Part shown: positions 4,180 to 35,914 of the stretch, in pieces
Layout: each line of letters starts with the position of its first letter
Numbering within the stretch: position 1 is the first letter of the stretch
IMG/VR virus record: IMGVR_UViG_3300029258_003236
Span: 1-44,345 of that record
Source: a virus
Reading direction: 5' to 3' (one strand)
DNA: 44,345 bases
The notes under the pieces: generated by a model
The model's input: only the letters and a program-made list of their open reading frames with translations
What the model was told of the DNA's origin: nothing
Databases searched by the model: none
Translations under genes and position numbers: made by a program

Positions 4180-4432
4180 TGGTTAATGTCTCCCCTATAT
4201 CAATGGTCACCCCGGACGTCGAATTGAACGTCCCGGTTCCCACTCTACCCTTCAAGTAGATGGTATGGTCATCCGAGTCCAAATCCTGCATGTCGGAGTG
4301 GGACCGGTAATCAAGCTGCGTTATCGATCCCTCCTTCTCCACCAGGTCGTTGTTGGTTGGGGCCTGCGCCCCTCCCACCCTCTCAAACAGGTCGCGGAAG
4401 AAATTCTGCCATTCTGTGTTGAGGCTATTCAT
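4025..4432 (-). CDS. Small tail adaptor-like protein
   Basis: 135 aa. The N-terminus (NTEWQNFFRDLFERVGG) is followed by a fibre-type motif, DSDDHTIYLKG (about residues 53-63). A C-terminal beta-rich domain of about 60 residues (STSGVTIDIGETLTSADY ... STFDVYNSGADS) closely resembles the segment inserted in the gp4-like protein at 5840-6844. The start ATG overlaps the stop of the gp10-like gene by 8 nt and has an AGAGGAAG ribosome site. Position and motif suggest a needle or fibre-attachment protein, an inference from synteny with the P22 gp4-gp10-gp26 order. It could form one polypeptide with the following tailspike by frameshift. Confidence 0.7.
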   Translation of the reverse strand: MNSLNTEWQNFFRDLFERVGGAQAPTNNDLVEKEGSITQLDYRSHSDMQDLDSDDHTIYLKGRVGTGTFNSTSGVTIDIGETLTSADYRVIITPTTADPSTIGAISIYNRTTSTFDVYNSGADSASSFDWIIVER

Positions 4433-5837: not shown

Positions 5838-5839
5838 GA

Positions 5840-6844
5840 TCACCTCCCGGACAGGATGTTATAACCCATTCCACCCCGGAGCATAGATCGAAGGTCCGGA
5901 TTAGCCAGTAAGCGTCGGGGGCGGGCATGGGATGATTTGATTGCCGATTTGGATAGGACCGCAAGGGAGGCCAGAGTGGACCCCGGAGACTTGCCGAAGT
6001 TGGGGCAGATCTCAACGGCCAAGTTGGCAATGATGGCCCGCGAATAGCCGGGATAGAGAGTGACGGATGTGGTAAGATCGGAAAATTGAGTCAGCTCCTT
6101 AACCACCCGAAAATAGATATCAATCCCAGCCGACACGGAAGCACCGGCTACGGCTCCCAAGGCATCGATCACCGTCCAGTCGAAGGTAGTGGAGGTATCG
6201 GCACCCGTGTTATAGACGGTGAATGAGGTGGTGCCCTTGCCGTTCACGCTGATGGCCCCCACCGTGGACGCATCAGTGGAAGTGGGCTGAATGAACACAA
6301 TATAGTCGGACCCGGATAGGGTGGCCCCAATGGAAACGGATACCCCGCTGGGTCCCCCAAATGTCCCGGTCCCGGTGTAGATAGTGGTGTTATTAGCCGA
6401 CAGAATATAGGAGTCGACCAGAGAAAGTGAGGGGATAGGCCATATATACACCCTCCCCTGGGTCTGCTCTGGGCTGTAGGCCACAAGCTCGGGGTCTCCC
6501 TCCGAGAACTTGTTCTTCACTCGGCGGAATGTGTCCAGGGGGAACAGACGAAGATGATAGTCCGTCTCCCCCGAACGGATATAGGTTTCGTCTCGTATCT
6601 CCAGAGGACGGGCAGAGTCGAAATCCCCGCTCGGCCCATATGTATACTCCTGCTGACCTGCCACGAGAGTAAAGGATTCCTCCGTTTCGCACGGGACCAT
6701 AAAGTTTTCCAGGGACCAGGACTCCAGCATGTCGTTAAGTTCGTCCAGAATCTGGTTAGCCTTTCCGGATGGTATAGACTCCCCTGGTGCAATGACCCTG
6801 GCTTTAACCAAGGCCCGCTCGATTATGGAGTTGGCAGTAGGCAT
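5840..6844 (-). CDS. P22 gp4-like head completion protein with inserted beta domain
   Basis: 334 aa. The N-terminus (TANSIIERALVKARVIAPGE...ANQILDELNDMLESWSLENF) and the later RRVKNKFSEGDPELVAY...RVYIWPIPS, together with the C-terminal YPGYSRAIIANLAVEICPNFG, fit the gp4-type tail accessory factor that lines the channel below the portal. Residues about 160-245 are an insertion absent from ordinary gp4 proteins: a beta-rich module (GVSVSIGATLSGSDYIVF, STVGAISVNGKGTTSFTVYN). It is similar to the C-terminal domain of the gene at 4025-4432. The start follows the previous stop directly (TAAATG), with GGAGG upstream. No lysozyme motif was recognised. Confidence 0.82.
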   Translation of the reverse strand: MPTANSIIERALVKARVIAPGESIPSGKANQILDELNDMLESWSLENFMVPCETEESFTLVAGQQEYTYGPSGDFDSARPLEIRDETYIRSGETDYHLRLFPLDTFRRVKNKFSEGDPELVAYSPEQTQGRVYIWPIPSLSLVDSYILSANNTTIYTGTGTFGGPSGVSVSIGATLSGSDYIVFIQPTSTDASTVGAISVNGKGTTSFTVYNTGADTSTTFDWTVIDALGAVAGASVSAGIDIYFRVVKELTQFSDLTTSVTLYPGYSRAIIANLAVEICPNFGKSPGSTLASLAVLSKSAIKSSHARPRRLLANPDLRSMLRGGMGYNILSGR

Positions 6845-9348: not shown

Positions 9349-10599
9349 TTAACCGGTAATCCTCACTCCCAATTCCGCTCGGATAGTATCCCAGCCGAAC
9401 AGAATATCCAACCTGGTGATCTCCTTATAGTTGGAGATGTCATAGGCGGTGGCTACAGTGATGGCCATACCCAACTGCGGATCCGAAGCCTGTGCCCACA
9501 TCACGGACTGCCCGGCGGACTTGGGCTTCTCGAACGGCACCATGGTCATGGCAAAACAGTCCGGATGGAAAGCCAAATTCTGCGGATATCCCGTGGCTTC
9601 CGTGCCCACAATGGATACTGCAGCCCCGTTCTGGGGAAGGGTACCCACCGTCTGGTAGGGGAGATTGTCTTCCCCAGCAGCAGAGGAGTAGATGGTGGGG
9701 GAAATGGGAACAGTAGCTTCCCCAGATCCGTTAGAGGTGACGTCGGCAGTGACCACAAACTGGCGCAATTCGCTCCCTTCCCACACGGAACCGGAGACGG
9801 GATTGACGCCGTAGACTGCGGCTATGGTGATAATGTCCCCCTGCTTGAGGACGGCAGTGGAATTGGCCCAGCCGTCAATAGCCAGGGAGGAGGCCCCCTC
9901 AGCCGTGGCCCCATTCATCACCGGCGTGGAGCCGGAGGTATGGGTGCCGGTGGTATGGGTCTGGATGTTCTGATCCATGAAGAAGTCCATCAGAGCAAAG
10001 CGCCCAATGAACCCCTTTCGGATCAGGGTATCAACCATATTCTGCTGGAAGACGCCCTTCAATTCACCGTCGGCCATAGACCAGTGAGCCTTGGGGGAAA
10101 GGACGCAGATCCGGTTTTCACGGGGAACGGCCTCATTGTCCATGCGGGTAGCAGCATCGGCCAGTACCCCAAAAGTTGCGGGGGTGGTCCCAGCAGTACC
10201 CACCAGATTGTAGATGTTCTTATATTCCTCACACCCAAGCTCATCGACCTTATTGGCAAGGGCGATGGTGGCAGGGACGATATATTTTCGGGAGAACCCC
10301 TCAATTTCCAGGGTGAGATCCTTCTCCAGAAAGTCCCAGGCTACGTGTTTGTGTTCATCAACCGTCACGGTCGTGTTTCGCTCATCGATATCGACCAGAT
10401 CAATGGTAGCCCCATCCTTGGTCCGGAATTTGTTGGGGAGCTGGACGCGGACAGAATCTCCACGTTTGTACCCACCAACGGCGGCATTGAACTGGTTGTT
10501 ATATCCCTTATACACGTGACGGCCAAAGGTCAACTGGTTCTGTAAATCGAACAGTGCCCTTTCAGCGATCATTGAATGAGTAAGGAAAGAATCAGACAT
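9349..10599 (-). CDS. Major coat protein, P22 gp5 family
   Basis: 416 aa. The N-terminal half follows the P22 gp5-type HK97-fold coat pattern: SFLTHSMIAERALFDLQNQL, RHVYKGYNN, YKRGDSVRVQLPNKF, DEHKHVAWDFLEKDLTLEI, and IVPATIALANKVDE. The C-terminal half has IYSSAAGEDNLPYQTVG and NLAFHPDCFAMTM followed by YKEITRLDILFGW, both typical of this family. Residues about 225-345 probably form the inserted domain. AGGAG lies upstream of the ATG. The scaffold gene ends 10 nt earlier, giving the canonical portal-scaffold-coat order. Confidence 0.93.
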   Translation of the reverse strand: MSDSFLTHSMIAERALFDLQNQLTFGRHVYKGYNNQFNAAVGGYKRGDSVRVQLPNKFRTKDGATIDLVDIDERNTTVTVDEHKHVAWDFLEKDLTLEIEGFSRKYIVPATIALANKVDELGCEEYKNIYNLVGTAGTTPATFGVLADAATRMDNEAVPRENRICVLSPKAHWSMADGELKGVFQQNMVDTLIRKGFIGRFALMDFFMDQNIQTHTTGTHTSGSTPVMNGATAEGASSLAIDGWANSTAVLKQGDIITIAAVYGVNPVSGSVWEGSELRQFVVTADVTSNGSGEATVPISPTIYSSAAGEDNLPYQTVGTLPQNGAAVSIVGTEATGYPQNLAFHPDCFAMTMVPFEKPKSAGQSVMWAQASDPQLGMAITVATAYDISNYKEITRLDILFGWDTIRAELGVRITG

Positions 10600-11418: not shown

Positions 11419-11604
11419 TTAAATCGCCCGAGACTTCTCGGTACTTTGTTTGCGGTTAACTCCTGTAATTTCCACTTTTCCTTTACGGACTGTGAAGTGG
11501 ACCCGGTTCCCTTGCTGGTCGATCACAGTCCGGGACTTCATAGGTCTCCCGTCAAGGGCAGCCCGGTTTCTAAGCGACTCAATATCTCCATTCCTCAAGG
11601 TCAT
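11419..11604 (-). CDS. Small hypothetical protein between portal and scaffold
   Basis: 61 aa, basic. The start ATG overlaps the portal stop (ATGA) and a GGAGG lies 6 nt upstream, so it is translated by coupling. The sequence includes NRVHFTVRKGKVEITGVNRK, a short predicted beta hairpin. I do not recognise the family. Retention between portal and scaffold suggests a small structural or assembly factor. Confidence 0.65.
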   Translation of the reverse strand: MTLRNGDIESLRNRAALDGRPMKSRTVIDQQGNRVHFTVRKGKVEITGVNRKQSTEKSRAI

Positions 11605-13571
11605 TCCGTACCTCCCTGCTGTCCAAATCCGAGGGCCTGCAGGGCACCAGAGGCTCCAGCTTCGGCCACCCCCTGTTCATGCCCATCCAGTTCCCTTCTT
11701 TGTTCAACAATATCCAGTTTCTTCTTCAAGTTGCCGAGTTCAATGGAATTGGCCTTTAGCCTCTTGATTATCTCGTCGATGGAGGGGGGCTGGGGCTGGG
11801 GAGGACCCTCATCATCGATCCCGGGGGGAAGCAACTTCCGGAGCCGGTTGGCTATCTTCTGCGCCCCGGGCCAGTCCTGGTTCTCGGCTATCAAGTCCAT
11901 GACCAGGGAGGCCGTATCGGGTGCGGTCCGCACGAAGTCCAGCATGGACTCTGCAGCCTCTACCCGCTGGGTAGTGAAGGACGGGCCAGTGGTGACCACT
12001 ATCTTATATCTCCCCATGGACAGGTCGTTTACCAACACGTTCTCCCCGCTCTCGTCATCGAACACCTCCTGGTTGACGGAGACCATCTTCTCCCTTTCCA
12101 TCTCGTCCATGATCAGGACCTGCCTCTCCGTGTCATATATCTTGGGGATGAGATCCACTAGGATGTCCCCACAAAATTTCACACCCCGGCGAAGGTTGTC
12201 GTGGTAGATGAAGTTGGCCACATCCCCCTCTCGCTGTCTGGCCAAGATGGCCCGGCCCGATACCTCATTGGACTGTGCCCCCAAACTGGCATCGAATAGG
12301 GAGGTGGTAGCCTTGATCTCGTCGTTAGCCAAGTTGGATTCCGTCATCTCCCCTATGGCGGTCTGGGTTACCACGTTCCTCTCTGGTGCTCCCACCCCAG
12401 ATACTGCCTTGTAGAGAAGGTAGGGAAGGTTGGTTCGGCCCACAGAGGACCACTCCTCCTCGTGTCCCTCAATCTGTCTCTCCTCCATGATGTAGGGAGC
12501 CTTGGGGGCCAGGGCAACCGTCTCTGTGGCGGCGGTCCGGAAATAGTTATACATCCTCTGGGGATCCTTGGCGAACCGGATCAGTCCCCGGATGAACACC
12601 TCATCGTCAACTACTATCTCCTTACCAAGCACCCGGACGATCGGGATGTAGCGACCCGGCCAGTCCGTCCTGGATATTACCTTGTCTCCCCCGATTAGAT
12701 ACTGAACCACTTTGTGGGTCTTCACATCTCGGGTCCGGGTAACGGTGGGGACCTCCTTGGCGTCTGGATCCCCGGCGGCAATCTCCTGCAGCTCATCTAC
12801 TATCTTATCCCACTGGTCGAGATCCACGGTGCGACCATCGGACAGGAGGCCGAGGCGTTTAGTTACTGGCTCCTTGGTCCAGTATTCGGCCACCTGGACC
12901 ATGTCCTCCTCGATCCACAATTGGCTGCCGTTCGACATTTCCGCAGAGAAGGGAGACGCCTCCACCCCATATCGGGCCTTCATCTCCTTCCGGGAGATCT
13001 TCTCCACTATGAAGACGAATCGGGCGTCCCTCCCGTCCGGTTCCTGGGTCTGATTGTCGAAATAGACGGATAGGGGGTTCCGGATTCTGCGGATGTATAT
13101 CTCCTGCTCAAAAGTGGAATCCCCCGCATACTCAGAGTCGATGCGGAAATATCCGAATCCGTTATTAACCGACCCCTCCAGGGCAGTCTGATACGCAATA
13201 TCGGAGTCGGAAACCACCTCAATATTGCGGATCATCCCCTGAATGGTCTGGGCCACCTGCTCAGTGGATCCCCCACCGGACGGCCTCACCTTGATGGAGG
13301 TCTTGTTGAGGCGGGCATCGTTTATCACCTGGTCAACAAAGGAGGGCAGCTTGTTGACCGTAAGGCAGGGTCTCTCCGTCAGCTCCCTATTCCGGACTAT
13401 GCTCCCAGGCCAATGGTCCTTACCTGCTAGCATCCTCAGGTCTTCCCGGGCTTCGTCCCTGTTGGCAGCTTCGAAGGAATCTACCGTCTGGAAGCGGGAA
13501 TGGGCCTCATCTATGATCGCGTCATCCCCCTTGAGGTCCGGATTGCGGGTGTCTACTATCGTCTTATCCAT
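11601..13571 (-). CDS. Portal protein, P22 gp1 family
   Basis: 656 aa from the ATG at 13571, which overlaps the preceding gene's stop by 8 nt. Family features include DSFEAANRDEAREDLRMLAG near the N-terminus, LTERPCLTVNKLPSFVDQVIND, NNGFGYFRIDSEY, DPQRMYNYFRTAATE, KAPYIM, SNEVSGRAILARQREGDVA and RYKIVVTTGPSFTTQR. It would form the dodecameric channel for DNA packaging and ejection. The C-terminus (about residues 590-656) is helical and Gln-rich, possibly the barrel. It is followed by the small gene and the scaffold, as expected. Confidence 0.95.
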   Translation of the reverse strand: MDKTIVDTRNPDLKGDDAIIDEAHSRFQTVDSFEAANRDEAREDLRMLAGKDHWPGSIVRNRELTERPCLTVNKLPSFVDQVINDARLNKTSIKVRPSGGGSTEQVAQTIQGMIRNIEVVSDSDIAYQTALEGSVNNGFGYFRIDSEYAGDSTFEQEIYIRRIRNPLSVYFDNQTQEPDGRDARFVFIVEKISRKEMKARYGVEASPFSAEMSNGSQLWIEEDMVQVAEYWTKEPVTKRLGLLSDGRTVDLDQWDKIVDELQEIAAGDPDAKEVPTVTRTRDVKTHKVVQYLIGGDKVISRTDWPGRYIPIVRVLGKEIVVDDEVFIRGLIRFAKDPQRMYNYFRTAATETVALAPKAPYIMEERQIEGHEEEWSSVGRTNLPYLLYKAVSGVGAPERNVVTQTAIGEMTESNLANDEIKATTSLFDASLGAQSNEVSGRAILARQREGDVANFIYHDNLRRGVKFCGDILVDLIPKIYDTERQVLIMDEMEREKMVSVNQEVFDDESGENVLVNDLSMGRYKIVVTTGPSFTTQRVEAAESMLDFVRTAPDTASLVMDLIAENQDWPGAQKIANRLRKLLPPGIDDEGPPQPQPPSIDEIIKRLKANSIELGNLKKKLDIVEQRRELDGHEQGVAEAGASGALQALGFGQQGGTE

Positions 13572-13737
13572 CCTTAACCCCACGTGATAAATAGCCGACC
13601 AGCCCTCCCCCAATGGCGCTTACTACCTCTTTGGCCCCGGCCTCCATGAACACCATCGCCCCATAGGCAATAGCGGCCAGGACCACAATGGTCAGCTCTT
13701 CGGACAGGTCTGTGGTCCACCACGGTTTCTTGTCCAT
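13564..13737 (-). CDS. Small membrane protein, holin candidate
   Basis: 57 aa. A polar N-terminus (MDKKPWWTTDLSEE) is followed by two short hydrophobic stretches (LTIVVLAAIAYGAMVFM; VVSAIGGGLVGYL) and a positively charged end (SRGVKDG). It begins at the TAATG junction with the preceding gene and overlaps the portal start. Length, two hydrophobic segments, charge distribution and closeness to the endopeptidase fit a small holin. No family match is claimed. Confidence 0.65.
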   Translation of the reverse strand: MDKKPWWTTDLSEELTIVVLAAIAYGAMVFMEAGAKEVVSAIGGGLVGYLSRGVKDG

Positions 13738-17577: not shown

Positions 17578-19008
17578 TTAGGCTCCTAACCACCCGTGGG
17601 TTCCAGTGGCCCGCATAGGGGGCAAGTAGGAACTAGACCGTCGGGGCCTCTGGGTGATCCGATACCCCTCTCCGGCTCCCACCATCCCGTATTCTGCAGC
17701 CTCACAGACGTGGGACCACCAGTTCTTATCCGGTTTATCGTGATATTTCTCATCCCCCACCACCTGCATCCGTTTGTAGATGAATTTGGAGGAGAGACCT
17801 TTGCGGAGAGCCTTGCAGCTTGGGTCAATGATGAGACCCGGTTCCCCATCGATCATTCGGGATAGGGGAGCAGCCAGAGCCTCTCGGCGGAGGGTGGGGT
17901 CCTGGGATGGGGCGGGCTGAATGTTGAAGCCAAGGGCCTCCAGAATTTGGAGGGGGGTGGAGGAGTCCACCTGGTTTCTCTGGACTCCGGCGGGATCCCC
18001 GAACATCTCGATTTGGAATCCGTCCAGTTCGGAGAGAATATAGGGTAATAGTTCCAGTTCCCCGAAGCGTTTGACCCCAATGTCCTCCGTCGCTATCTCG
18101 TGGAATAGACGCCACTGGCCGTTGGCGGCCTGCTGGAAGAAGGCGGCAGCGGGGGTGAGGCCGAAGTCCAGTCCCACTACGGTCCGAAGTCGGGGATCGG
18201 GGACTATGGTGGAGGGGGCGCAGTGGGTGGCATCGGCATACTCGGGGTGGACCCTCTTCCCCTCCTCTACATATCCAAATTGGTTGCAATAATAAACCCG
18301 AACATACGATTCCGCTTTCCCCGCTAACCTCTTGAGGTAGTAGTCATGGCCCCCGTTGAGATTGCGTATATTCTCGGCCTTGGGGTTGGGGACGAAAGAT
18401 CCGCGAAATTCCTTGAGTGCTCCGGGCTGGGTGAAGAACTCCCAACCTTCGGGGGGATTGGCCTCCAATTCGAACCACCAGTGGTCCTCATCGGGGGCAT
18501 TGGTATCCATGAACACCCCGCCCCAGGTGCAACCCTCGTCCATGCGGGAGGGGTACTGCTCAACTCGGTCTCCCAGGGTATCGATGACGGCCTTGGGCAC
18601 CTCCCGTGCCTCATTCACCCACCCTCCGGTCACTTCCATGGATAGGAGCTTCGCAATATCGTCGGGCCGGTCCAGGGCGCGGAACATGACCTCGCAGTGG
18701 ATATCGTTGAATTGGAGAAGATGGACCATGGAGCGGCGATTGACCTTGCCGAAGACATCTTCGGGGAACCACATCAGCCAAGTCTTGAGGGTAGTGTCCT
18801 CCAGCTCCCGATAGGTGTTGCGGATTACCGCCCAGCGGGTGCGGCGGACTCCGGATTGGGAAGGGGCCTGGCGTCGGGCGCGGTTGATAATCTCGATACA
18901 CATGGCCGTGGACTTTCCGCTACGGACGGGACCCCGCAGTCCCCGGTAGAAGGCATCGGACTTGTGAAGTTGGGAGGGCGTTGGCTCCGCTATATAGTGG
19001 ATCTTCAT
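17578..19008 (-). CDS. terL: Terminase large subunit
   Basis: 476 aa. The ATPase domain has Walker A GPVRSGKST (26-34) and Walker B-like MEVTGGWVNEAREV (125-138). The RNase H-fold nuclease shows VVGLDFGLTP (D282), the MFGDPAG segment (D339), and a late acidic/His region (NWWSHVCEAAEYGM). It is the packaging motor and cuts DNA into the portal. GGAGAG lies upstream, and the start overlaps the sulfotransferase-like stop. The missing canonical DE pair in Walker B (NEA instead) is seen in several phage terminases. Confidence 0.95.
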   Translation of the reverse strand: MKIHYIAEPTPSQLHKSDAFYRGLRGPVRSGKSTAMCIEIINRARRQAPSQSGVRRTRWAVIRNTYRELEDTTLKTWLMWFPEDVFGKVNRRSMVHLLQFNDIHCEVMFRALDRPDDIAKLLSMEVTGGWVNEAREVPKAVIDTLGDRVEQYPSRMDEGCTWGGVFMDTNAPDEDHWWFELEANPPEGWEFFTQPGALKEFRGSFVPNPKAENIRNLNGGHDYYLKRLAGKAESYVRVYYCNQFGYVEEGKRVHPEYADATHCAPSTIVPDPRLRTVVGLDFGLTPAAAFFQQAANGQWRLFHEIATEDIGVKRFGELELLPYILSELDGFQIEMFGDPAGVQRNQVDSSTPLQILEALGFNIQPAPSQDPTLRREALAAPLSRMIDGEPGLIIDPSCKALRKGLSSKFIYKRMQVVGDEKYHDKPDKNWWSHVCEAAEYGMVGAGEGYRITQRPRRSSSYLPPMRATGTHGWLGA

Positions 19009-19529: not shown

Positions 19530-19920
19530 CATCCCCTCCAATATCGAAGACCATGGTAACTTTCTTGTTCCCGAAGTCCAACTTGGCCTGGGGATTGAAT
19601 TTCTTTTTGTAGGCTTTGAGCAGAAACATGAGGAGATTGTCGGAATATTTGCGGACCTGCCCCACCTCTTCCCCCTGGTGGTATACCGGCTCCAGTACCC
19701 CCTCAACTGCCCGTCGGCGGGCCTCTTCTTCCACCATATCGTATCCCGCGTCCAGTGCCTCACGGATCTTTTGGTCGAAGTCTTCATCCTTCTTCCGCGC
19801 CCGATACAAATTGGAGTGGTGGACTCCCATCAGCCTGCAGACTGCAGTGACATTCGGGAGAACCACGAGCATCTCCAGGAATTGCTCTTTGAATTCGGCG
19901 GTAATCTTCGATTCTGCCAT
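19522..19920 (-). CDS. terS: Terminase small subunit
   Basis: 132 aa from the ATG at 19920, chosen for its GAGAGGAT ribosome site. The N-terminal helix-turn-helix (VLPNVTAVCRLMGVHHSNLYRARKKD, about residues 21-46) would bind the packaging site. The helical middle (REALDAGYDMVEEEARRRAVEG) fits an oligomerisation region. The segment SDNLLMFLLKAYKKKFNPQ is frequent in TerS proteins of this type. It is the first gene of the late arm and faces the repeat-rich control region. Confidence 0.88.
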   Translation of the reverse strand: MAESKITAEFKEQFLEMLVVLPNVTAVCRLMGVHHSNLYRARKKDEDFDQKIREALDAGYDMVEEEARRRAVEGVLEPVYHQGEEVGQVRKYSDNLLMFLLKAYKKKFNPQAKLDFGNKKVTMVFDIGGDDG

Positions 19921-24906: not shown

Positions 24907-25227
24907 CTACGGAGAGCTTTCCCCACCCATCTCCTCAAACAGGCCCTCCAGGAGGATCAAGTAGTTGATCAGGTCTCCCACCTTTTCCTTCACCAGGTCG
25001 CGGTCCGAATGGTCCAGGCGACCCTCCACCAGGTCAACCACGGATACCAGGTGCTTGGCGGCCATTCCCCACAGAGCGCGGGGGGCAGAGGTCCTTCCCA
25101 TAAGGGCAGCCAGACGGAAGTTGTGGAACCGGTCGGAGGGTGTGGCATACTCGGACCCCTTGGCGGACAGGACCCTCCGGATGAGGGTTATGCGGCTTTC
25201 AACTATAGCATCGAAGTTATTGGACAT
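24907..25227 (-). CDS. NTP-pyrophosphohydrolase/DUF1599-like protein, MazZ candidate
   Basis: 106 aa, all-helical, from the ATG at 25227, overlapping the purZ stop by 11 nt. It reads VLSAKGSEYATPSDRFHNFRLAA, then GMAAKHLVSVVDLVEG, then VKEKVGDLINYLILLEGLFE. The K-x-x-E-Y, KH..S..D and E-K-x-x-D-L-I-N-Y-L elements are those of DUF1599 (nucleotide-modification-associated) proteins, with an acidic helix like all-alpha MazG-type pyrophosphohydrolases. In aminoadenine phages MazZ converts (d)GTP to dGMP, the PurZ substrate. Coupling to purZ makes that the leading guess; catalytic residues are not proven. Confidence 0.7.
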   Translation of the reverse strand: MSNNFDAIVESRITLIRRVLSAKGSEYATPSDRFHNFRLAALMGRTSAPRALWGMAAKHLVSVVDLVEGRLDHSDRDLVKEKVGDLINYLILLEGLFEEMGGESSP

Positions 25228-26296
25228 CCTCAATTACCTCCACCATCCACTGGTTCTCTGGTCCCGTCCCTACCAGGTCCACCGGGACTCCCCCAAAGTC
25301 CTCCACCTTCCGGATGAACTGGATCACGGGGTCCGTTAGCCGGTGGGATCGGTAAACGGACCAGTCCAGGTAGTTGGCGAATTGGAGACAGATGGACGTG
25401 GGGGCGCAGATTCGGACGAACAGCTCATATCGCTCCCACGAGAAGGTGAACACCCTCCGGGGCAGCTTGGTGGTCGTGGTGATCTCCCCGAAGTCCGAGA
25501 TGGGACCGGGGTATCCGCAGATCCGGGCCACGGTGGTCCAGTCTATCTCCTCCGCATCAGCATAGGGTCCACTGGTTCCGGTCCGGTTGTTGACCCGAAT
25601 GGGAAAGGGTCGGATGACCCCGAAGATGGACCCCACGGAGGAGGGAGGAACCCCGGCTTCGGCCATCGCCATGGACGGATTGATCATCTTGGACGTGCAA
25701 TAGCGGGGATGAATCCCGTGCTCCAGGTCGAGATCGAATCCCTGGGTCATTTCGCACAGGACGAGGCTGTCCTCCCCCAAGTGGGTCTGGATCATCACCG
25801 AAACGGGAAAGGTGGATATCATCCCGTGCAGCTCCGGCTTATCCTTTGCTAACTGGATGGTCCCATCCCGCCTCATCTTTTCCCTACGGCATGCCCCGAT
25901 CCCCTGGAGGGTGGACCCGATGTCGCTCATCCCCTCCCCCTTCTCCCTGCTGATATGGTCTTCCCCGATGACCGCAGCCCGGGGGTCGATATAGATCCGG
26001 TTTGGGCTTATCCCCAGGGCCACTATCTCCTCCCGAAGGATCCGAGGGTTAATCACACTGGCAGCGGTCAGCAGGATGTCGGCGGAGCACATAACTGCTC
26101 CGATGGGCAGGTGATAGCTGACCATCTTGGCCCCGCCATCCATCACCACCGTGTGCCCAGCATTTGGTGACGCGGTCATCACCAGAACATCCGGCTGGAA
26201 CCGCTGACACAACCACCCGGACAGCTTTCCCTTGGCTTCCGACCCGGCTTGGCCTCCCACGATCACGTTGAACTTTCCTCTCGGCATCTTGATCAT
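25217..26296 (-). CDS. purZ: PurZ, phage adenylosuccinate-synthetase homologue for 2-aminoadenine
   Basis: 359 aa, shorter than bacterial PurA (about 430). The P-loop-like start GGQAGSEAKGK (14-24) has Ser19 where PurA has its catalytic Asp (GDEGKGK), the change that marks PurZ. NAGHT (45-49), GSTLQGIG (127-134), HGIHPRYCTSKMINP and RVNNRTGTSGPY follow the PurA/PurZ plan. PurZ joins aspartate to dGMP to give dSMP, which host PurB and kinases turn into dZTP. The ATG has AAAGGAGG upstream. It heads a short minus-strand unit with the MazZ candidate, embedded among plus-strand genes. A divergent PurA acting on IMP is the alternative, but Ser19 and phage context argue for PurZ. Confidence 0.9.
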   Translation of the reverse strand: MIKMPRGKFNVIVGGQAGSEAKGKLSGWLCQRFQPDVLVMTASPNAGHTVVMDGGAKMVSYHLPIGAVMCSADILLTAASVINPRILREEIVALGISPNRIYIDPRAAVIGEDHISREKGEGMSDIGSTLQGIGACRREKMRRDGTIQLAKDKPELHGMISTFPVSVMIQTHLGEDSLVLCEMTQGFDLDLEHGIHPRYCTSKMINPSMAMAEAGVPPSSVGSIFGVIRPFPIRVNNRTGTSGPYADAEEIDWTTVARICGYPGPISDFGEITTTTKLPRRVFTFSWERYELFVRICAPTSICLQFANYLDWSVYRSHRLTDPVIQFIRKVEDFGGVPVDLVGTGPENQWMVEVIEDVQ

Positions 26297-26312: not shown

Positions 26313-26639
26313 TTAAGGGTTAAGGGTTTGCAGAATCTCATCGACGGATTTCCTCATCCGATACTGGCGCTTCTGCTGGTCGGTGAGATCGGAATAGCAT
26401 CGTTGGTGCGGCTGGAGACGGTCAACTGAAAAAAGGGGATCGTCCCCCTGGAGACGCCGGAGGATCGACTCGCGACGGCGGTTCAACCTCCTCCGGTCAT
26501 TCCGATACGGAGGGGATTCCCATGGGGCGGTCCGGTCCAACTCCTGGTCGATCAGGTGAAGTTGCAGCCGGAGATCGCCCCGGGATTCCCGCATCTCATG
26601 TCGTGCCCGCTCCGTCATTCTTGTCTCTGGATCATCCAT
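26313..26639 (-). CDS. Charged hypothetical protein upstream of purZ
   Basis: 108 aa from the ATG at 26639. No clear ribosome site is visible and nearby ATGs at 26618 and 26597 are alternatives. It is very rich in Arg, Asp and Glu and helical (RARHEMRESRGDLRLQLHLI, then RNDRRRLNRRRESILRRLQG), with a C-terminal TDQQKRQYRMRKSVDEIL. I do not recognise it. It is the promoter-proximal gene of the purZ unit and faces the XRE regulator across about 170 bp. Confidence 0.55.
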   Translation of the reverse strand: MDDPETRMTERARHEMRESRGDLRLQLHLIDQELDRTAPWESPPYRNDRRRLNRRRESILRRLQGDDPLFSVDRLQPHQRCYSDLTDQQKRQYRMRKSVDEILQTLNP

Positions 26640-26662
26640 TGAGGGTGTGCGTTCTTGCGTTG

Positions 26663-26684
26663 GTGCGCCAGTGCGCCAGTGCGC
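26663..26684. repeat. GTGCGCCA tandem repeat in divergent intergenic region
   Basis: Two exact 8-bp units and a partial third (GTGCGC) lie 24 bp before the 26639 start, in the 26640-26811 intergenic region. They could be a direct-repeat operator for the adjacent XRE regulator. Confidence 0.6.
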
Positions 26685-26750
26685 TCCTCCCCGTCTCCCA
26701 TTGCCCACTACACACAGTTTAACAGCCGGGGGGACGCGCGGGAAGCCCCC

Positions 26751-26779
26751 TTGCGTCGCCGCGTTCGGGGTGATATGAT
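26751..26779 (+). promoter_or_regulatory. Extended -10 sigma-70 promoter for the regulator/replication operon
   Basis: TTGCGT (26751-26756), a 17-bp spacer, then TATGAT (26774-26779) with an upstream TG (TGATATGAT). It lies 33 bp before the ATG of the XRE gene. GTTCGG occurs on each side of the -10 box (26763 and 26784), a possible operator pair. Confidence 0.7.
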
Positions 26780-26811
26780 TTGTGTTCGGAGCAACCAGCG
26801 AGGAGGACGAG

Positions 26812-27051
26812 ATGGAGAAATTTGAGATAACGATCAGGGACAAGGATGACAAGCCGGTGGAGGTGATCGTCAACGTCACCCGACTGGCAAGGCAGACGGG
26901 ATATTCAGTCTCTCATATCAGCCGGGTGATGAGAAGGGAGACACAGCCATCGGTGGAGTGCCTGGTGGCCCTGGCTTCGGCCTTGGGGCTATCAATTGAC
27001 AAGCTCCATACCATGATTAAAGAGAGGGAGATCCGTGTTGCGGATAGTTGA
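26812..27051 (+). CDS. XRE-family transcriptional regulator
   Basis: 79 aa from the ATG at 26812 (GAGGAGGACGAG upstream). Residues 1-20 form a short beta segment. Residues about 22-66 are a Cro/CI-type helix-turn-helix: LARQTGYSVSHISRVMRRET, then PSVECLVALASALGLSIDKL. It would bind DNA as a dimer and is the natural candidate for controlling the divergent 26640-26811 region. No C-terminal peptidase domain is present, so it is not a LexA/CI-type cleavable repressor. The next gene starts inside its 3' end. Confidence 0.85.
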   Translation: MEKFEITIRDKDDKPVEVIVNVTRLARQTGYSVSHISRVMRRETQPSVECLVALASALGLSIDKLHTMIKEREIRVADS

Positions 27052-27547
27052 GAAGGGCGAAGGCCCCAACCCGGACGAATTCCGGATTCCCGCATCGGAC
27101 ACCAAGGGCCATTCAGCCCGCCTATGGTTTCGTGCCATCCCGGCAATGGCGAGGCAAATGGAACAGGTAGTCCAATCCAAGGCTTTCCCCTACCGGACCA
27201 AGGGTGATCTCCTCCGCCATGCGCTTCACCGGCACATGTCGTGGCTGGGGAGACAGGACGACATCACTTCGGTCTCGGGCCAGGTGGACGTCATTTTGGA
27301 GATCATGAGGGATGAGGAGGCCAATAACGACTTCCAGGCGGTGTTCTCCCGTCTGGGGGAACGGGTCACCCAGCACCTCACCCGGGGGTCCACCCGGGAG
27401 GCCCAGAGGTTGATATTGACCGTCAAGCGGCACATAGACCGGATGCCCGAGGGTTTCTGGAAGGACCGGTATAAGGAGGAACTGATGGATCGATATGGTG
27501 AGCTGGCTAATGGAGGAACCAGGGCGAACCTGGGTGATATGAAATGA
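27035..27547 (+). CDS. Conserved phage protein upstream of the helicase
   Basis: 170 aa from a GTG at 27035 with GGGAG upstream. The N-terminal region (SARLWFRAIPAMARQMEQVV, then FPYRTKGDLLRHALHRHMSWL) resembles a ribbon-helix-helix-like DNA-binding segment found in similar phage proteins. The C-terminal two thirds are helical and charged. It overlaps the helicase start (ATGA), suggesting linked expression and a replication role. The exact function is unknown. Confidence 0.65.
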   Translation: MLRIVEKGEGPNPDEFRIPASDTKGHSARLWFRAIPAMARQMEQVVQSKAFPYRTKGDLLRHALHRHMSWLGRQDDITSVSGQVDVILEIMRDEEANNDFQAVFSRLGERVTQHLTRGSTREAQRLILTVKRHIDRMPEGFWKDRYKEELMDRYGELANGGTRANLGDMK

Positions 27548-29085
27548 GTTTACCCCCACCGGCGGCATTCGGTCTTCCCCCCAAATTCAGCGAGTGGAGG
27601 GAGCACCAAGCGGAGGCGTGTGAGTCCATCGCGGGGGCTGATGCCCGTTTCCTCCTCCTGGTCTGTCCGACAGGCTTTGGGAAGTCCGTGGTATATATGT
27701 CCGCTGCCCGCCTCCTCATGGGCCGAACCGTGGTCCTCACCTCCACCAAGGGGCTGCAGAGTCAGTTGATGGCCGACTTCGGGGGAGAGGATGTGGTGGA
27801 CATTCGGGGACGGGGGAACTATCCCTGTCGCCTCAACACCAAGGTCTCATGTGACAGCGGGATGTGCAGCTTCGGGGTAAAATGCAGCCTCAAATCCGAA
27901 GGGGGATGTTTTTATTACGACCAGTTAAGAAGGGCGATGAGGGCCAAGGTGGTGGTCACCAATTATGCCTATTGGATGGCGCAGAATGAATACAGCTCCG
28001 GTCTGGGGGAGTTTCAGCTTCTGGTATTGGACGAGGCCCACTCGGCCCCGGACCACCTGATCGACCATATCTCGGTCCGCTTCTCAAAGAAGAACAAGCT
28101 GGAATCCCGCCTCCTCCGGCTTAATGGCTCCCTGCCCAACGATGCCCGGACTTGGTCCGATTGGGCACTGGAGCGGTTGGTGGAAGTGGAGGAGGAAATG
28201 GGGGACGCCAAGGCCCTCCGGAAAGAGAAGAAATTTGTGGCCTTGAAGCGGCTGTCCAAGAAGCTGGAGCGGATACAGGAGATAGACGGACGCTGGGTGT
28301 GGGAGGATAACCCCGACGCCGTCACCCTAAGCCCCCTGTGGCCCGCCCCCTTCGCCGAATCCCACCTGTTTTTGGGAGTCCCCCAGGTGGTCCTGACCTC
28401 CGCCACGGTTGTCCCCAAGACCGCATCTCTCCTGGGCGTCAACGGGGGCTTGAAGGTCAGGGAATACCCCCACTCGTTCCCGGTCGAACACAGGCCGCTC
28501 ATCCACGTCCCCACGGTCCGGATGAATTACCGGATCGGGGAGGCCGAGAATCGCCAGTGGGTCACCCGAGTGGACCAGGTGATCCGAGACCGGCTGGACC
28601 GGAAGGGGATAATTCACACGGTATCCTATGCCCGACGGGATCTGATCCTGCAGCGATCCAAATACCGGGAGTATATGGTCAGCCATGGCCGAAGAGACAC
28701 GGAATCCGTGGTTCGCAGCTTCAAGAGGATGGAGGCCCCGGCGATCCTGGTCTCCCCCTCTATGGCGACCGGCTGGGACTTCCCAGAGGGTGAGTGCAGA
28801 TGGCAGATAATCGTCAAGCTTCCTTACCCCGACACTCGTGGGGTAATAATCAAGGCGAGATCAAAGGCGGATCGTGACTTCACGGCCTATTTGGTCATGC
28901 AGCAGTTAATCCAAGCAACCGGAAGGGGGGTGAGATCAAAGGAGGATTGGTGTGAGACGTTTGTGACGGATAACAACATCACGTGGTTCCTGGTGCGGAA
29001 TGAGCATCTGACGGTCGAGTGGTTTAAGGGGGCCTATCGACTGAATAAAACCATCCCCAAGCCTATTGGAGGTAGTTATGGCTAA
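27544..29085 (+). CDS. Rad3/DinG-type superfamily 2 DNA helicase
   Basis: 513 aa. Walker A is PTGFGKS (42-48) and the DEAH box is VLDEAHSAP (161-169). Between them lie cysteines 95, 103, 108, 114 and 122 in the place of the Fe-S cluster of XPD/DinG helicases, ending in the family-typical GGCFYYDQ. C-terminal motifs include LVSPSMATGWDFPEG and LIQATGRGVRS (motif VI, arginine finger). It would unwind DNA 5'-3' in replication or recombination. It is shorter than host DinG (about 700 aa), as in other phage versions. Confidence 0.88.
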   Translation: MSLPPPAAFGLPPKFSEWREHQAEACESIAGADARFLLLVCPTGFGKSVVYMSAARLLMGRTVVLTSTKGLQSQLMADFGGEDVVDIRGRGNYPCRLNTKVSCDSGMCSFGVKCSLKSEGGCFYYDQLRRAMRAKVVVTNYAYWMAQNEYSSGLGEFQLLVLDEAHSAPDHLIDHISVRFSKKNKLESRLLRLNGSLPNDARTWSDWALERLVEVEEEMGDAKALRKEKKFVALKRLSKKLERIQEIDGRWVWEDNPDAVTLSPLWPAPFAESHLFLGVPQVVLTSATVVPKTASLLGVNGGLKVREYPHSFPVEHRPLIHVPTVRMNYRIGEAENRQWVTRVDQVIRDRLDRKGIIHTVSYARRDLILQRSKYREYMVSHGRRDTESVVRSFKRMEAPAILVSPSMATGWDFPEGECRWQIIVKLPYPDTRGVIIKARSKADRDFTAYLVMQQLIQATGRGVRSKEDWCETFVTDNNITWFLVRNEHLTVEWFKGAYRLNKTIPKPIGGSYG

Positions 29086-31841: not shown

Positions 31842-32024
31842 ATGGAGATTGAATATCTGGAGATAGATTACGACGAGATCGTGGCCGAGAGCGAGATGGC
31901 CATATGTCTCCGGTTGGATGGCGAAACGGAACAGTGGATCCCCAAGTCCGTGATGAGCTGCTATCCCAGCGACGGGGTAGCGGATGTGGCCGCCTGGTTC
32001 GCGGAACGGGAGGGCCTCATATGA
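31842..32024 (+). CDS. Small acidic hypothetical protein
   Basis: 60 aa from the ATG at 31842, overlapping the XPF-like start (ATGA). It is acidic (MEIEYLEIDYDEIVAESEMA), with ICLRLDGETEQWIPKSVM resembling short phage proteins next to recombination genes. The function is unknown. Confidence 0.6.
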   Translation: MEIEYLEIDYDEIVAESEMAICLRLDGETEQWIPKSVMSCYPSDGVADVAAWFAEREGLI

Positions 32025-32749
32025 TCCTGGTCGATGACCGCACTGGATCCGCCGAGATCGCCCCCTTCCTGTCATCCCCCAACGTCGTCTGTCGCCTCCC
32101 CTTTGCCGACTTTGCCTGGTCCGGATTCGGCCCGACCGGTCCCGTGGATGTTGGGGTCGAGCGCAAGTCTCTTCTCGATCTCCTCCAGTCCATGTCTTCC
32201 GGTCGCCTCTCCGGGCACCAGCTTGTCGGCCTGACCCAACACTATGATTGGGTGTTCCTCCTGGTCGAAGGAGTCTGGCGTGCCGATCGACGAAATGGTA
32301 TGCTGATGCGTGTGGGGGCGAAGGGGAAGTGGATCCCGGCAGCCCAAGGGTCCCGCCGGTTCATGGCCCGGGACGTCTGGGCCTTTTTCCATTCTCTATC
32401 CATCATCTGCGGTCTGCAGGTGGTCACAACCGGTTCGCGGTGGGAAACTGCCAGGTGGCTGGACGCCTCCCATGGGTGGTGGTCCAAGGGGTGGGAGAAG
32501 CACAAATCCCATCTCCAGTTTCACCGACAGGAGAGGTTCGCCCACCTCACCAAACCCTCTCTGGCTACCCGCGTCTGGTCTCAATTTGAGGGAATCGGGT
32601 GGGATAAGGCCCGGAAGCTGGCAGCCCACTTCCCGTCTATGGATTCTATAATGGCGGCTACCAGAGAGGAGCTGGAGGAGGTCGAGGGTATTGGACCCAA
32701 GATGGCCGAGTCCATCATCAATCAAAGGAGGCAATATGCGGATAGTTAA
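32021..32749 (+). CDS. XPF/ERCC4 structure-specific nuclease with HhH domain
   Basis: 242 aa from the ATGA overlap at 32021. The N-terminal nuclease domain has ILVDDRTGS (D5/D6), then VDVGVERKSLLDLLQSMSSG (42-61), the ERK-x3-D-L motif of ERCC4 nucleases, and the usual GRLSGHQLVGL follow-on. The C-terminus (about 190-240) has tandem helix-hairpin-helix motifs (FEGIGWDKARKLAAHF; VEGIGPKMAESI). It would cut branched DNA at replication or recombination forks and could replace a classical Holliday-junction resolvase. Confidence 0.88.
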   Translation: MILVDDRTGSAEIAPFLSSPNVVCRLPFADFAWSGFGPTGPVDVGVERKSLLDLLQSMSSGRLSGHQLVGLTQHYDWVFLLVEGVWRADRRNGMLMRVGAKGKWIPAAQGSRRFMARDVWAFFHSLSIICGLQVVTTGSRWETARWLDASHGWWSKGWEKHKSHLQFHRQERFAHLTKPSLATRVWSQFEGIGWDKARKLAAHFPSMDSIMAATREELEEVEGIGPKMAESIINQRRQYADS

Positions 32750-33300: not shown

Positions 33301-35914
33301 CCTCTGCCCCACCCTGGCCGAAGCCCGCCGCGTCTGTTGGCCCGAGGTCCTCCAGTCCGACCCCACCCGGGACCCCCAGATCCTTGTGGTCGCCGAGTCC
33401 CCTGGGATAGAGGAGGACAGGGCCGGTCGCCCCCTCATTGGGGCAAGTGGGGAAGAGTGTCGCCATATGCTGCTGGTCAACGGTCTCTTCAACCGGGGAG
33501 TCCGGCTGGCCAATGTGGTCTGGTGCCATCCCCCCGGCAACCGGGATCCCCACCCCGCAGAGGTCAGCACGTGCACCGAGACCCATCTCCTCCCCCTCAT
33601 CCAACAGATGAAGCCCCAATGGGTAATCAGCATGGGGGCCGTCTCCACCCGCTTCTTTCTCGGGGATGCCAATATGGAAATGGATCACGGCATCCCCAGA
33701 CCCGTCACCGTGGGCAACCACGAATTCACCCTCATCCCCAGCTATCATCCCGCCGCCGGTCTCCACAGCCCGGAGACCATGATCCTCTTCCACCGGGACA
33801 TCCAGGTTGCCGCCGCCGTCATCCGGGGGGATCTTCCCTCCGTCCCCCCGGTCGATGGTTTTGACGGCAACGAATATTATGAGATCATCGACTCCCCCGG
33901 AATGGTGGAGACCATCATCTGGGATTCCCCGGTGGTCGCCGTCGACACCGAGTGGGCCAAGGGACAGCCGTGGGGCCTCAGCTTCTCCGTAGCTCCGGGA
34001 GCCTCATTCGTCGTCCATGCGGCCTCAGGCCCGGCCTTGGCTGCTCTCGGATCTCTCTTAGCCTACGGGCACCCTACGGCGGGGTCCCCTCCACCCACGA
34101 CCGTGATTCACAACGCGGCATACGACATCCCGGTGCTGGCCCAGATGGGTGTCCATCCCGCCCGGATCGCGGACACGATGGTGATGGCCTACCTGCTCCA
34201 GGATGAACCGCAGGGGCTAAAGCCGCTGGCCGCACGACACTGTGGGATGAAGATGGACGCCTATGGGGATATGGTGGGGGAGGCGACGAGGGCAAAGGCG
34301 ATTCAATATCTGGAGATGGTGGCCGGGATAGAATGGCCGGATCCCAAGCCCGTGCTGGAGTGGGCCAAGGGTGAGCCGAAGGTGAGGCAGCCGCAGAATA
34401 TTAGGAGGAAAGTGAAGAGGGTGTTGGCGGATGTGGAGGAAGGGGAGCCGGTGGACCCATACCACCGATGGTTGAAGATGGATGGGAGAGGGGAAGTGGA
34501 GGCGGAGCTGTGGCCGCTGGTGGAGGCGGAACTGGATGAGATCGACCAGGAGGCGGCGACCCACTACTCGGCACGGGATGCGGACGCGACGATACGGGTA
34601 TACCCCATCCTTTGGGGAAGGATTCAGGCGATGGGGTTGGAGGAGACGTTCTGGCGTGATATGAGGGCGATGCCCATGGTGGTGGATATGATGGGGAAGG
34701 GGATGCCGATAGACCACCAGGCGTTTGGGAGATTGAGCCAATACCTGCAGGATCGGATGGATGAGGTGCAGCGGGAGATTGAGGCGTTGGTGGGGGAGCA
34801 TCTGGACGGGAAAGCGGCAAATCCGGCAAGCTACCCGCAGATGTCTACCCTGATCTATGACCGGCTCCGGCTGCACGAGGCCGGGGGGCGGTTCAAGAGC
34901 AAGAAGGGGGCAAAGGAAAAGTCAACGGCCAATGACATACTGATGCGGTATATTGGGATACACCCGGTGGTCCAGAAGATAATCGATTGGAGGGAATACC
35001 AGAAACTAAAGACGGCCTACGCGGACTCGATACCCCAGATGGCAGAGGGAGACAGGATTCATACTACCCTCCGGTTGACGCGGACGACGACGGGGAGGTT
35101 AAGCTCATCATCCCCTAATCTGATGGCCCAGCCCCAACGGTCGGCTGAGGGACGGAAGGTGAGGGACTGCTATCTGGCCCCTCCGGGATGGGTGTTCCTG
35201 TCCGGGGACTATAGTCAGGTGGAGATGAGGGTGGCCGCAAGTGAGGCGGAGGATGAGCAGATGATGTCCATCTTCTGGCAGGGGGAGGACATACACAGCC
35301 AAACCGCCTCCCGAATGTTCGGTGTCCCCGTCCCCCAACTGGACGAGATGAAGCATCGATATCCGGCGAAACGAGTGGGCTTTGGGATTCTCAACCTGAT
35401 AACGGCGGAAGGACTGCAGAGGGAACTGGCCGTGGGAGGGGCGGATCAATGGACCGTGGCCGACTGCCAGGAGATGATCCGGGCCTGGTTTGACGTCTAT
35501 CCCGGGGTAGCGGCCTACATGAAGGCTTCGGGGGAACACGCGAAACGGAAAGGTTATGTGCGAGACTGCTGGGGGCGAGTCCGCTGGATACCCGGAATCC
35601 GCAGCCCAAACCGGTGGACCCGGATAGAAGCGGAGAGACAAGCGGGGAATGCGCCGATTCAGATGGGGGCGCAGGGGGTGATAAAGGAGGCTATGGGGCG
35701 ACTGGTTCCGTTCTACAGGGAAAGGGAAGACGTGTGGCCCCTGATCCAAATCCATGATGATATAGTATGGGAGGTGCGGGCCGAGTCCATAGGTGAGGTG
35801 AAGCCCCGGATCAAGAAAATAATGGAGGGGGCGGCATCCAGGGGATTCATGGTGCCGCTGGAGGTGGACTTCAAGTGGGGACCCCGATGGGGGTCGATGG
35901 GAAAGGAGACGTGA
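33287..35914 (+). CDS. UDG (family 4)-DNA polymerase A fusion
   Basis: 875 aa from the ATG at 33287; upstream in-frame codons belong to the preceding gene. Residues 1-185 are a family-4 uracil-DNA-glycosylase domain: C4, C7, C80 and C96 as Fe-S ligands, AESPGIEED (36-44) and the HPAA motif (154-157). Residues about 210-445 are a 3'-5' exonuclease (D220-T-E222, HNAAYD 275-280, Y427/D431). The polymerase domain has motif A SGDYSQVEMR (639-648), motif B RYPAKRVGFG (691-700) and motif C IHDDIVWE (822-829), where HDE is usual. It is the replicative polymerase and may be a DpoZ-like enzyme suited to 2-aminoadenine. UDG-PolA fusions are known in SPO1-type phages. Confidence 0.93.
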   Translation: MKKCDLCPTLAEARRVCWPEVLQSDPTRDPQILVVAESPGIEEDRAGRPLIGASGEECRHMLLVNGLFNRGVRLANVVWCHPPGNRDPHPAEVSTCTETHLLPLIQQMKPQWVISMGAVSTRFFLGDANMEMDHGIPRPVTVGNHEFTLIPSYHPAAGLHSPETMILFHRDIQVAAAVIRGDLPSVPPVDGFDGNEYYEIIDSPGMVETIIWDSPVVAVDTEWAKGQPWGLSFSVAPGASFVVHAASGPALAALGSLLAYGHPTAGSPPPTTVIHNAAYDIPVLAQMGVHPARIADTMVMAYLLQDEPQGLKPLAARHCGMKMDAYGDMVGEATRAKAIQYLEMVAGIEWPDPKPVLEWAKGEPKVRQPQNIRRKVKRVLADVEEGEPVDPYHRWLKMDGRGEVEAELWPLVEAELDEIDQEAATHYSARDADATIRVYPILWGRIQAMGLEETFWRDMRAMPMVVDMMGKGMPIDHQAFGRLSQYLQDRMDEVQREIEALVGEHLDGKAANPASYPQMSTLIYDRLRLHEAGGRFKSKKGAKEKSTANDILMRYIGIHPVVQKIIDWREYQKLKTAYADSIPQMAEGDRIHTTLRLTRTTTGRLSSSSPNLMAQPQRSAEGRKVRDCYLAPPGWVFLSGDYSQVEMRVAASEAEDEQMMSIFWQGEDIHSQTASRMFGVPVPQLDEMKHRYPAKRVGFGILNLITAEGLQRELAVGGADQWTVADCQEMIRAWFDVYPGVAAYMKASGEHAKRKGYVRDCWGRVRWIPGIRSPNRWTRIEAERQAGNAPIQMGAQGVIKEAMGRLVPFYREREDVWPLIQIHDDIVWEVRAESIGEVKPRIKKIMEGAASRGFMVPLEVDFKWGPRWGSMGKET

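What the first reader, a model, noticed from the sequence alone, without database searches (positions are those of the whole stretch)
24907..26296. PurZ with a linked NTP-pyrophosphohydrolase-like gene: probable 2-aminoadenine (Z) genome in a P22-like podovirus
Seen: a 359-aa adenylosuccinate-synthetase homologue with Ser in place of the catalytic Asp (GSEAKGK, Ser19), overlapping a small all-helical DUF1599/MazG-like gene, in a genome with a family-A polymerase. Known: PurZ, MazZ and a PolA-type DpoZ form the aminoadenine pathway in phages such as phiVC8 and S-2L relatives, mostly siphoviruses. Inferred: this phage replaces A with Z. A P22-like podovirus with this pathway would widen its known range.
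Basis: partly seen in the sequence, partly recalled or inferred. Interest (0 to 1): 0.85.

Follow-up and report, generated by a model that had tools for sequence, protein, structure and literature searches.

The report
Third lineage of viral aminoadenine genes
This uncultured virus carries an enzyme that very probably makes the building block 2-aminoadenine, used by some viruses instead of adenine in their DNA, and it belongs to a previously unrecognised third branch of such viruses that pairs the enzyme with a different, unusually built DNA polymerase.

Summary
The 359-aa ORF (25217-26296, -) is a real PurZ-type enzyme. It has Ser19 and most of the other published PurZ-specific pocket residues, and it folds like PurZ/short PurA. 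It is not a member of either described PurZ clade. It falls in a 100/100-supported lineage of 21 sequences, nearly all uncultured viral contigs. That lineage is separate from PurZ and PurZ0 and scores far below NCBI's PurZ cut-off (164-190 against 300 bits). The lineage has its own kit. Every one of 13 records tested has a family-A polymerase with an N-terminal uracil-DNA-glycosylase domain, in a clade separate from DpoZ-1 and DpoZ-2. At the Tyr766 position (E. coli Pol I) these polymerases have Asn; both known DpoZ groups have lost this Tyr too. Most relatives have a dATP/dGTP diphosphohydrolase gene (PF18909) just downstream of purZ. The window instead has an overlapping 106-108-aa all-helical gene of unknown function. 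That gene fails tests for DUF1599, MazZ-1, MazZ-2 and DUF5664, so its role as dNTP hydrolase is only inferred. No DatZ-like or dUTPase (DutZ-like) gene was found. Z-DNA is therefore likely but undemonstrated, and replacement of adenine may be partial. Podoviral Z phages are already known (phiVC8), so that part is not new.

The parts
25217..26296 (-). purZ-like gene, 359 aa: predicted succino-2-amino-deoxyadenylate synthetase (dGMP + Asp + ATP)
   Evidence: PF00709 4.8e-32; phrog_1211 1.8e-59; Ser19, Thr273, Asn308, Phe306, Ser128 and the PurZ-type insertion; tree; AF2 pLDDT 88.6, best matches P. horikoshii PurA and S-2L/phiVC8 PurZ
24907..25227 (-). overlapping downstream gene, 106 aa from the ATG (108 aa from the TTG at 25233); phrog_6802, function unknown; proposed dNTP-hydrolase substitute for DUF5664
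   Evidence: overlap of 11 nt with purZ; phrog_6802 3.6e-30; all-helical model; invariant K25, Y29, K60, H61, D67, E83, K84, D87, N90, Y91
26313..26879 (-). ORF just upstream of purZ, 188 aa; C-terminal half resembles ORFs upstream of purZ in relatives, function unknown
   Evidence: 45% identity over 83 aa to the ORF upstream of purZ in L005; a similar ORF seen in L004
33080..35914 (+). DNA polymerase family A with N-terminal uracil-DNA-glycosylase domain; homology starts near residue 70, so the true start may be the ATG at 33287
   Evidence: PF00476 8.9e-93, PF03167 7.2e-18, PF01612 7.9e-13; clade polymerases align from residue 71-73; separate from DpoZ-1/2
33371..33772 (+). UDG domain (family-4 like) inside the polymerase gene
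   Evidence: PF03167 residues 98-231, placed at 33371-33772
27544..29085 (+). DinG/DEAD-type helicase, conserved in many clade members
   Evidence: phrog_2488 1.5e-79; 58-68% identity in most relatives whose stretch holds it, 39-40% in L036 and L037
31133..31840 (+). Sak4-like AAA ATPase, conserved in the clade
   Evidence: phrog_124 4.8e-11; present in most clade loci
31904..32749 (+). ERCC4/XPF-type nuclease with HhH motifs, conserved in the clade
   Evidence: PF02732 1.1e-9; present in most clade loci
11601..13613 (-). P22-like portal
   Evidence: PF16510 3.9e-170; over the cut-off in 7 of 13 clade records
9349..10599 (-). major head protein
   Evidence: phrog_283 2.2e-75
4425..5843 (-). 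head closure Hc3 (podoviral connector)
   Evidence: phrog_578 8.4e-113
17578..19008 (-). terminase large subunit
   Evidence: phrog_2 8.5e-19

Best explanation
The ORF is a PurZ-type enzyme of a third, previously unseparated lineage. It most likely condenses dGMP with aspartate, using ATP (or dATP), to N6-succino-2-amino-dAMP; host enzymes then make dZTP. A UDG-fused family-A polymerase that evolved apart from both known DpoZ groups then builds DNA in which 2-aminoadenine replaces adenine, wholly or in part. In most relatives a DUF5664 dATP/dGTP diphosphohydrolase next to purZ supplies dGMP and lowers dATP. In this virus an overlapping all-helical gene sits in that place and may do the same job. 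Shown here: homology, clade, residues, gene linkage, polymerase architecture. Inferred: substrate, Z in the DNA, polymerase preference, role of the small gene.
For: Ser replaces the PurA catalytic Asp in 21/21 clade members; Thr273 (Gly in PurA) 21/21; Asn308 as in 9 of 10 PurZ (Asp in PurA and PurZ0), which predicts ATP over GTP; Phe306 stacking residue kept; Arg of PurA (E. coli R304 by gene numbering) replaced; PurZ-type insertion after Val235 present (read against PMC8342488). Clade 100/100; PurZ + clade + Bacillus phage vB_BpsS-140 100/98, apart from PurA, PurZ0 and cellular Ser/Gly homologues. PF18909 genes directly or within about 1 kb downstream of purZ in 21 relatives; PF18909 proteins hydrolyse dATP and dGTP in Z phages (PMC12884076). 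UDG domain in 13/13 records, in a polymerase-length open frame in 12 of them and in a frame cut by the contig end in one. Asn at the E. coli Tyr766 position in 15/15 clade polymerases; Phe in DpoZ-1/2; Tyr kept in two UDG-polymerases from phages not among the PurZ hits. PurZ fold.
Against: NCBI's PurZ model scores the clade at 164-190 bits, below its cut-off of 300, and about as high as the archaeal short PurA model. No DatZ-type or dUTPase family match in any of 13 records (DmtZ was not searched for). Ser at the catalytic position also occurs in cellular homologues of unknown role, so Ser alone does not prove Z synthesis. The fold does not separate PurA from PurZ. No direct chemistry; the polymerase is not a recognised DpoZ.
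Confidence: 0.76

Rival explanations
1. Partial-Z or pool-shifting system: PurZ makes dZTP, but without DatZ and with a polymerase that does not discriminate, virion DNA holds a mixture of A and Z.
For: No DatZ-like or dUTPase gene; window lacks DUF5664 too; polymerase outside DpoZ-1/2. Transplanted S-2L genes changed only about a quarter of plasmid adenines (PMC8342488).
Against: The polymerase clade has its own departure at the Tyr766 position, as known DpoZ groups do, which hints at adaptation to Z; 21 relatives have a dATP/dGTP hydrolase gene.
Confidence: 0.25
2. Ser-type adenylosuccinate-synthetase homologue with another substrate (not dGMP), serving nucleotide signalling, salvage or counter-defence, with normal DNA.
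For: Cellular homologues with Ser or Gly exist in Dehalococcoidia genomes, two fused to a P-loop kinase-like domain; vB_BpsS-140 carries a lone Ser-type gene.
Against: The cellular homologues lack Asn308 and fall outside the PurZ-plus-clade group; the clade's linkage to dNTP hydrolases and to an unusual polymerase fits DNA precursor synthesis.
Confidence: 0.13
3. Ordinary viral PurA making adenylosuccinate from IMP to boost adenine supply.
For: Scores similar to the archaeal short PurA model; the best structural match is P. horikoshii PurA.
Against: Catalytic Asp lost in 21/21, Gly-to-Thr and Asp-to-Asn changes, tree placement.
Confidence: 0.04
4. The small overlapping gene is an unrelated hitch-hiker and has no part in nucleotide metabolism.
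For: Its family is widespread (423 viral loci) and no PurZ lies within 4 kb in 80 of them; no match to MazZ-1, MazZ-2 or DUF5664; none of 12 other clade records has it.
Against: It occupies the slot of DUF5664 and overlaps purZ by 11 nt; four-helix model with invariant acidic residues; weak fold matches include several all-alpha NTP-pyrophosphatases.
Confidence: 0.4

Closest known systems
PurZ of phiVC8 / S-2L (with MazZ, DatZ; DpoZ in all but S-2L)
   Same: Ser at the catalytic position, Thr at the loop tip, Asn/Gln at the ATP-base position, insertion after the conserved Val, neighbour genes for dNTP hydrolysis, podoviral phage in the case of phiVC8
   Different: 33-34% identity only; GSEAKG instead of GSTGKG motif; Gln305 for Asn; different neighbour gene; polymerase of another clade with a UDG domain; no DatZ
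PurZ0 of Wayne/Ghobes-type actinophages (with DutZ, DmtZ, DUF5664, DpoZ-1)
   Same: GSEAKG motif; DUF5664 gene in the Wayne type (PMC12884076) and in most relatives of this clade
   Different: Separate 100/100 clade; Asn308 where PurZ0 has Asp; no dUTPase (DutZ) family match in 13 records
Bacillus phage vB_BpsS-140 'purA' (AZS49241)
   Same: Ser-type homologue, 37% identity over 97%, the best match among 50,697 phage records
   Different: Outside the clade; sits by different genes (RecA, adenylate kinase, dUTPase)
UDG-containing DNA polymerase I of Pseudomonas phage PaBG, and of PMBT14 and isolate ctfzr933
   Same: Uracil-DNA-glycosylase domain joined to family-A polymerase
   Different: PMBT14 and ctfzr933 polymerases fall in another clade and keep Tyr at the Tyr766 position; neither phage was listed among the PurZ hits; PaBG known to me here only from PMC7412058
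Archaeal-type short PurA (P. horikoshii, 5k7x/2d7u)
   Same: Short form, same fold, about 30% identity
   Different: Catalytic Asp, Gly and Asp at the three diagnostic positions

Membership tests
PurZ (NCBIfam NF038379, covering PurZ and PurZ0) | Score over the curated cut-off of 300 bits | tested here: not met
   184.6 bits; relatives 163.8-190.5, against phiVC8 397 and Ghobes 346
PurZ | Ser in place of the PurA catalytic Asp | tested here: met
   Ser19, 21/21 clade members
PurZ | Thr (S-2L T273), Gln/Asn (S-2L Q308), insertion after the conserved Val | tested here: met
   T273, N308, insertion NNRTGTSGPY (against PMC8342488)
PurZ | Lies within the PurZ or PurZ0 clade | tested here: not met
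   Separate clade 100/100; PurZ 98/96, PurZ0 100/100 without it; on the PurZ side 100/98
PurZ | dGMP + Asp + ATP activity | not testable with these tools
   Needs the purified enzyme
MazZ-1 / MazZ-2 / DUF550 | Sequence or profile similarity of the linked gene | tested here: not met
   hhalign probability 0.06% and 0.5%; no DUF550 or MazG Pfam match
DUF1599 | Pfam model match of the linked gene | tested here: not met
   No match at E<=10; none in 49 members at E<=0.1
DUF5664 (PF18909) | Pfam match in the window | tested here: not met
   0 matches in the window, 9 of 13 records overall
DatZ (YfbR-like) / DutZ (dUTPase) | Gene present in the genome | tested here: not met
   0 of 13 records for PF12917 and for PF00692; no DatZ tblastn match in the window or clade loci
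DmtZ (NDT-like) | Gene present in the genome | not tested
   No DmtZ reference or model was run against the window or the relatives
DpoZ-1 / DpoZ-2 | Over NCBI cut-off, or inside the clade | tested here: not met
   106 bits (cut-off 500) and 69.5 bits (cut-off 350); separate clade 100/100
P22-like podovirus | P22-type portal and podoviral connector | tested here: met
   PF16510 3.9e-170, phrog_578
Virus with Z-DNA | 2-aminoadenine in virion DNA | not testable with these tools
   Uncultured; needs mass spectrometry or nanopore signal

The most novel reading that the evidence does not exclude
A third, independently assembled Z-DNA system: a separate PurZ lineage with its own Z-adapted family-A polymerase carrying a uracil-DNA glycosylase, spread over several virion types in uncultured viruses, and in this virus with a new dNTP hydrolase family (phrog_6802) in place of DUF5664.
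Probability: 0.35. Interest if true: 0.8.

Novelty: new variant of a known kind. Interest (0 to 1): 0.62.

Why it matters
The most recent survey found in the library (PMC12884076, 2026) recognises two PurZ groups, each with its own polymerase. A third lineage with a third polymerase type would make the evolution of an adenine-free genome testable by comparison: which polymerase change is needed, and which pool-cleaning enzymes are optional. It would also show that NCBI's current PurZ model misses a whole branch, so such viruses are under-counted. The small overlapping gene would give a function to an unknown viral family with hundreds of members.

Tried and rejected
Ordinary PurA: rejected on residues and tree. 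Linked gene as MazZ, DUF550, DUF1599 or DUF5664: no support. Fold search of the small protein: no significant match, best E 1.2. Close relatives of the small protein by single-sequence scan: none; the alignment scan gave 423, none of the 80 kept with PurZ nearby. Host by tRNA: none found. Host by class search: one clade member sits on an 11-kb contig binned with a Dehalococcoidia genome, but no other of 197 genomes of that class has one, so the host stays open. UDG-polymerase fusion as a novelty: rejected, already reported for PaBG and present in PMBT14 and ctfzr933. Podovirus as a novelty: rejected. First tree with phage phiKT1024 PurA had a very long branch; rebuilt without it. A PADLOC scan failed for a coordinate error and was not repeated. 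DmtZ was not searched for.

Full report
Observation. The window is a whole IMG/VR virus record of 44,345 bases. The ORF at 25217-26296 (-) is a 359-aa adenylosuccinate-synthetase homologue (PF00709 4.8e-32; PHROG 1211, 2-aminooxy adenylosuccinate synthetase, 1.8e-59). The closest solved proteins by sequence are phiVC8 PurZ (2e-35) and archaeal PurA (3e-34). The motif is GSEAKGK with Ser19. A strong ribosome-binding site precedes the ATG, and the next gene starts inside purZ (ATG at 25227, 11-nt overlap). The portal is P22-type and the connector podoviral.

Residues. I mapped the published S-2L PurZ contacts (PMC8342488) onto an alignment. Ser replaces the PurA catalytic Asp in all 21 clade members. 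Thr273 replaces the PurA Gly. Asn308 stands where PurA and PurZ0 have Asp and where nine of ten PurZ have Asn (S-2L has Gln); by the published structure this favours adenine over guanine as the energy donor base. Phe306, the base-stacking residue, is kept. The PurZ insertion after the conserved Val is present. At one position the clade differs from all groups: Gln305 for Asn (PurZ) or Thr/Ser (PurA, PurZ0). The AF2 model is confident (pLDDT 88.6) and matches P. horikoshii PurA and the PurZ structures about equally, so the fold alone does not decide between them.

Phylogeny. Scans found six close relatives with the single sequence and 27 loci with an alignment, plus one on an 11-kb contig binned with a Dehalococcoidia genome. 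A maximum-likelihood tree of 46 sequences puts the window in a clade of 21 with 100/100 support. PurZ is 98/96 and PurZ0 100/100 without it; PurZ, the clade and Bacillus phage vB_BpsS-140 join at 100/98 (similar without the cellular homologues). NCBI's PurZ model gives this clade 164-190 bits against a cut-off of 300, while phiVC8 has 397 and Ghobes (PurZ0) 346. So the clade lies on the PurZ side but outside what has been described. Caveat: the archaeal Ser/Gly sequences of PMC12884076 were not available; the cellular Ser and Gly sequences from Dehalococcoidia genomes stand in for them and fall outside.

Neighbour gene. In 21 relatives a dATP/dGTP diphosphohydrolase gene (PF18909, DUF5664) lies directly or within about 1 kb downstream of purZ. 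PF18909 proteins from Z phages convert dATP and dGTP to the monophosphates (PMC12884076), which supplies dGMP and lowers dATP. Nine of 13 whole records have it; the window and the records of L036 and L037 lack it, and the record of L043 ends in purZ. The window alone of these 13 has the small gene instead. That protein belongs to phrog_6802, a family with at least 423 viral loci and no PurZ within 4 kb in the 80 kept. It is a four-helix protein in a confident model with invariant Lys, His, Asp and Glu residues. No profile comparison or Pfam match ties it to MazZ, DUF550, DUF1599 or DUF5664, and fold matches are not significant, though several of the weak ones are all-alpha NTP-pyrophosphatases. 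A dNTP-hydrolase role is therefore an inference from position, not a result.

Polymerase. The family-A polymerase at 33080-35914 joins a uracil-DNA-glycosylase domain, an exonuclease and a polymerase domain. A UDG domain is found in all 13 records: in 12 in an open frame of polymerase length, in one (L027's record) in a frame cut short. Its clade is 100/100 and separate from DpoZ-1 and DpoZ-2, and it fails both NCBI DpoZ models. At the E. coli Tyr766 position the clade has Asn in 15 of 15. DpoZ-1 and DpoZ-2 have Phe there, while UDG-polymerases of PMBT14 and ctfzr933, which were not listed among the PurZ hits, keep Tyr. Loss of this Tyr is noted as a departure in phiVC8 DpoZ (PMC8599892). This is correlation, not proof, of Z adaptation. 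The UDG fusion itself is not new (PaBG, PMC7412058).

What is missing. No DatZ-type HD protein or dUTPase-type protein is found in any of 13 records, and DatZ of known phages has no tblastn match in the window or clade loci. DmtZ was not searched for. The records may be fragments; none is rated complete. So dATP removal is unexplained in the window, and partial replacement remains possible.

Range. phiVC8 and ZP6 are podoviruses (PMC8342488, PMC8515928), so a podovirus with PurZ is not new. P22-type portals are over the cut-off in 7 of 13 clade records; several records of 42 to 64 kb show none, so the purZ module is likely carried by more than one virion type.

Verdict. The PurZ reading is well supported; the MazG label is not; a Z genome is likely but unproven. 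The real news is a third lineage with its own polymerase.

Noticed in passing
L008:7992-9548: The PurZ homologue is interrupted by a 154-aa intein-like insert at the Cys of the YCTSK motif (weak Intein_splicing and HINT matches).
   Followed up: partly
L159 (record of L041): The UDG-polymerase of this record has an intein-like insert in polymerase motif A (FDYC...HN/SQIEM).
   Followed up: no
L041:9424-9957: An MT-A70 adenine methyltransferase gene lies between purZ and DUF5664, odd in a virus expected to lack adenine.
   Followed up: no
L064, L065 (Dehalococcoidia genomes): Cellular PurZ-like proteins with Ser at the catalytic position, fused to an N-terminal P-loop kinase-like domain; L062 and L063 are unfused versions with Gly.
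   Followed up: partly
L009:11956-13077: Bacillus phage vB_BpsS-140 has a lone Ser-type homologue on its own branch, in a genome with adenylate kinase and dUTPase genes.
   Followed up: no
window 19005-19787 (-): ORF next to the terminase with sulfotransferase-like matches.
   Followed up: no
L007:3701-4474: The DUF5664 gene is fused to a DUF7768 domain; L038 carries a similar longer protein.
   Followed up: no
L036 and L037 records: Clade members with purZ and UDG-polymerase but neither DUF5664 nor the window's small gene; what replaces them is unknown.
   Followed up: no
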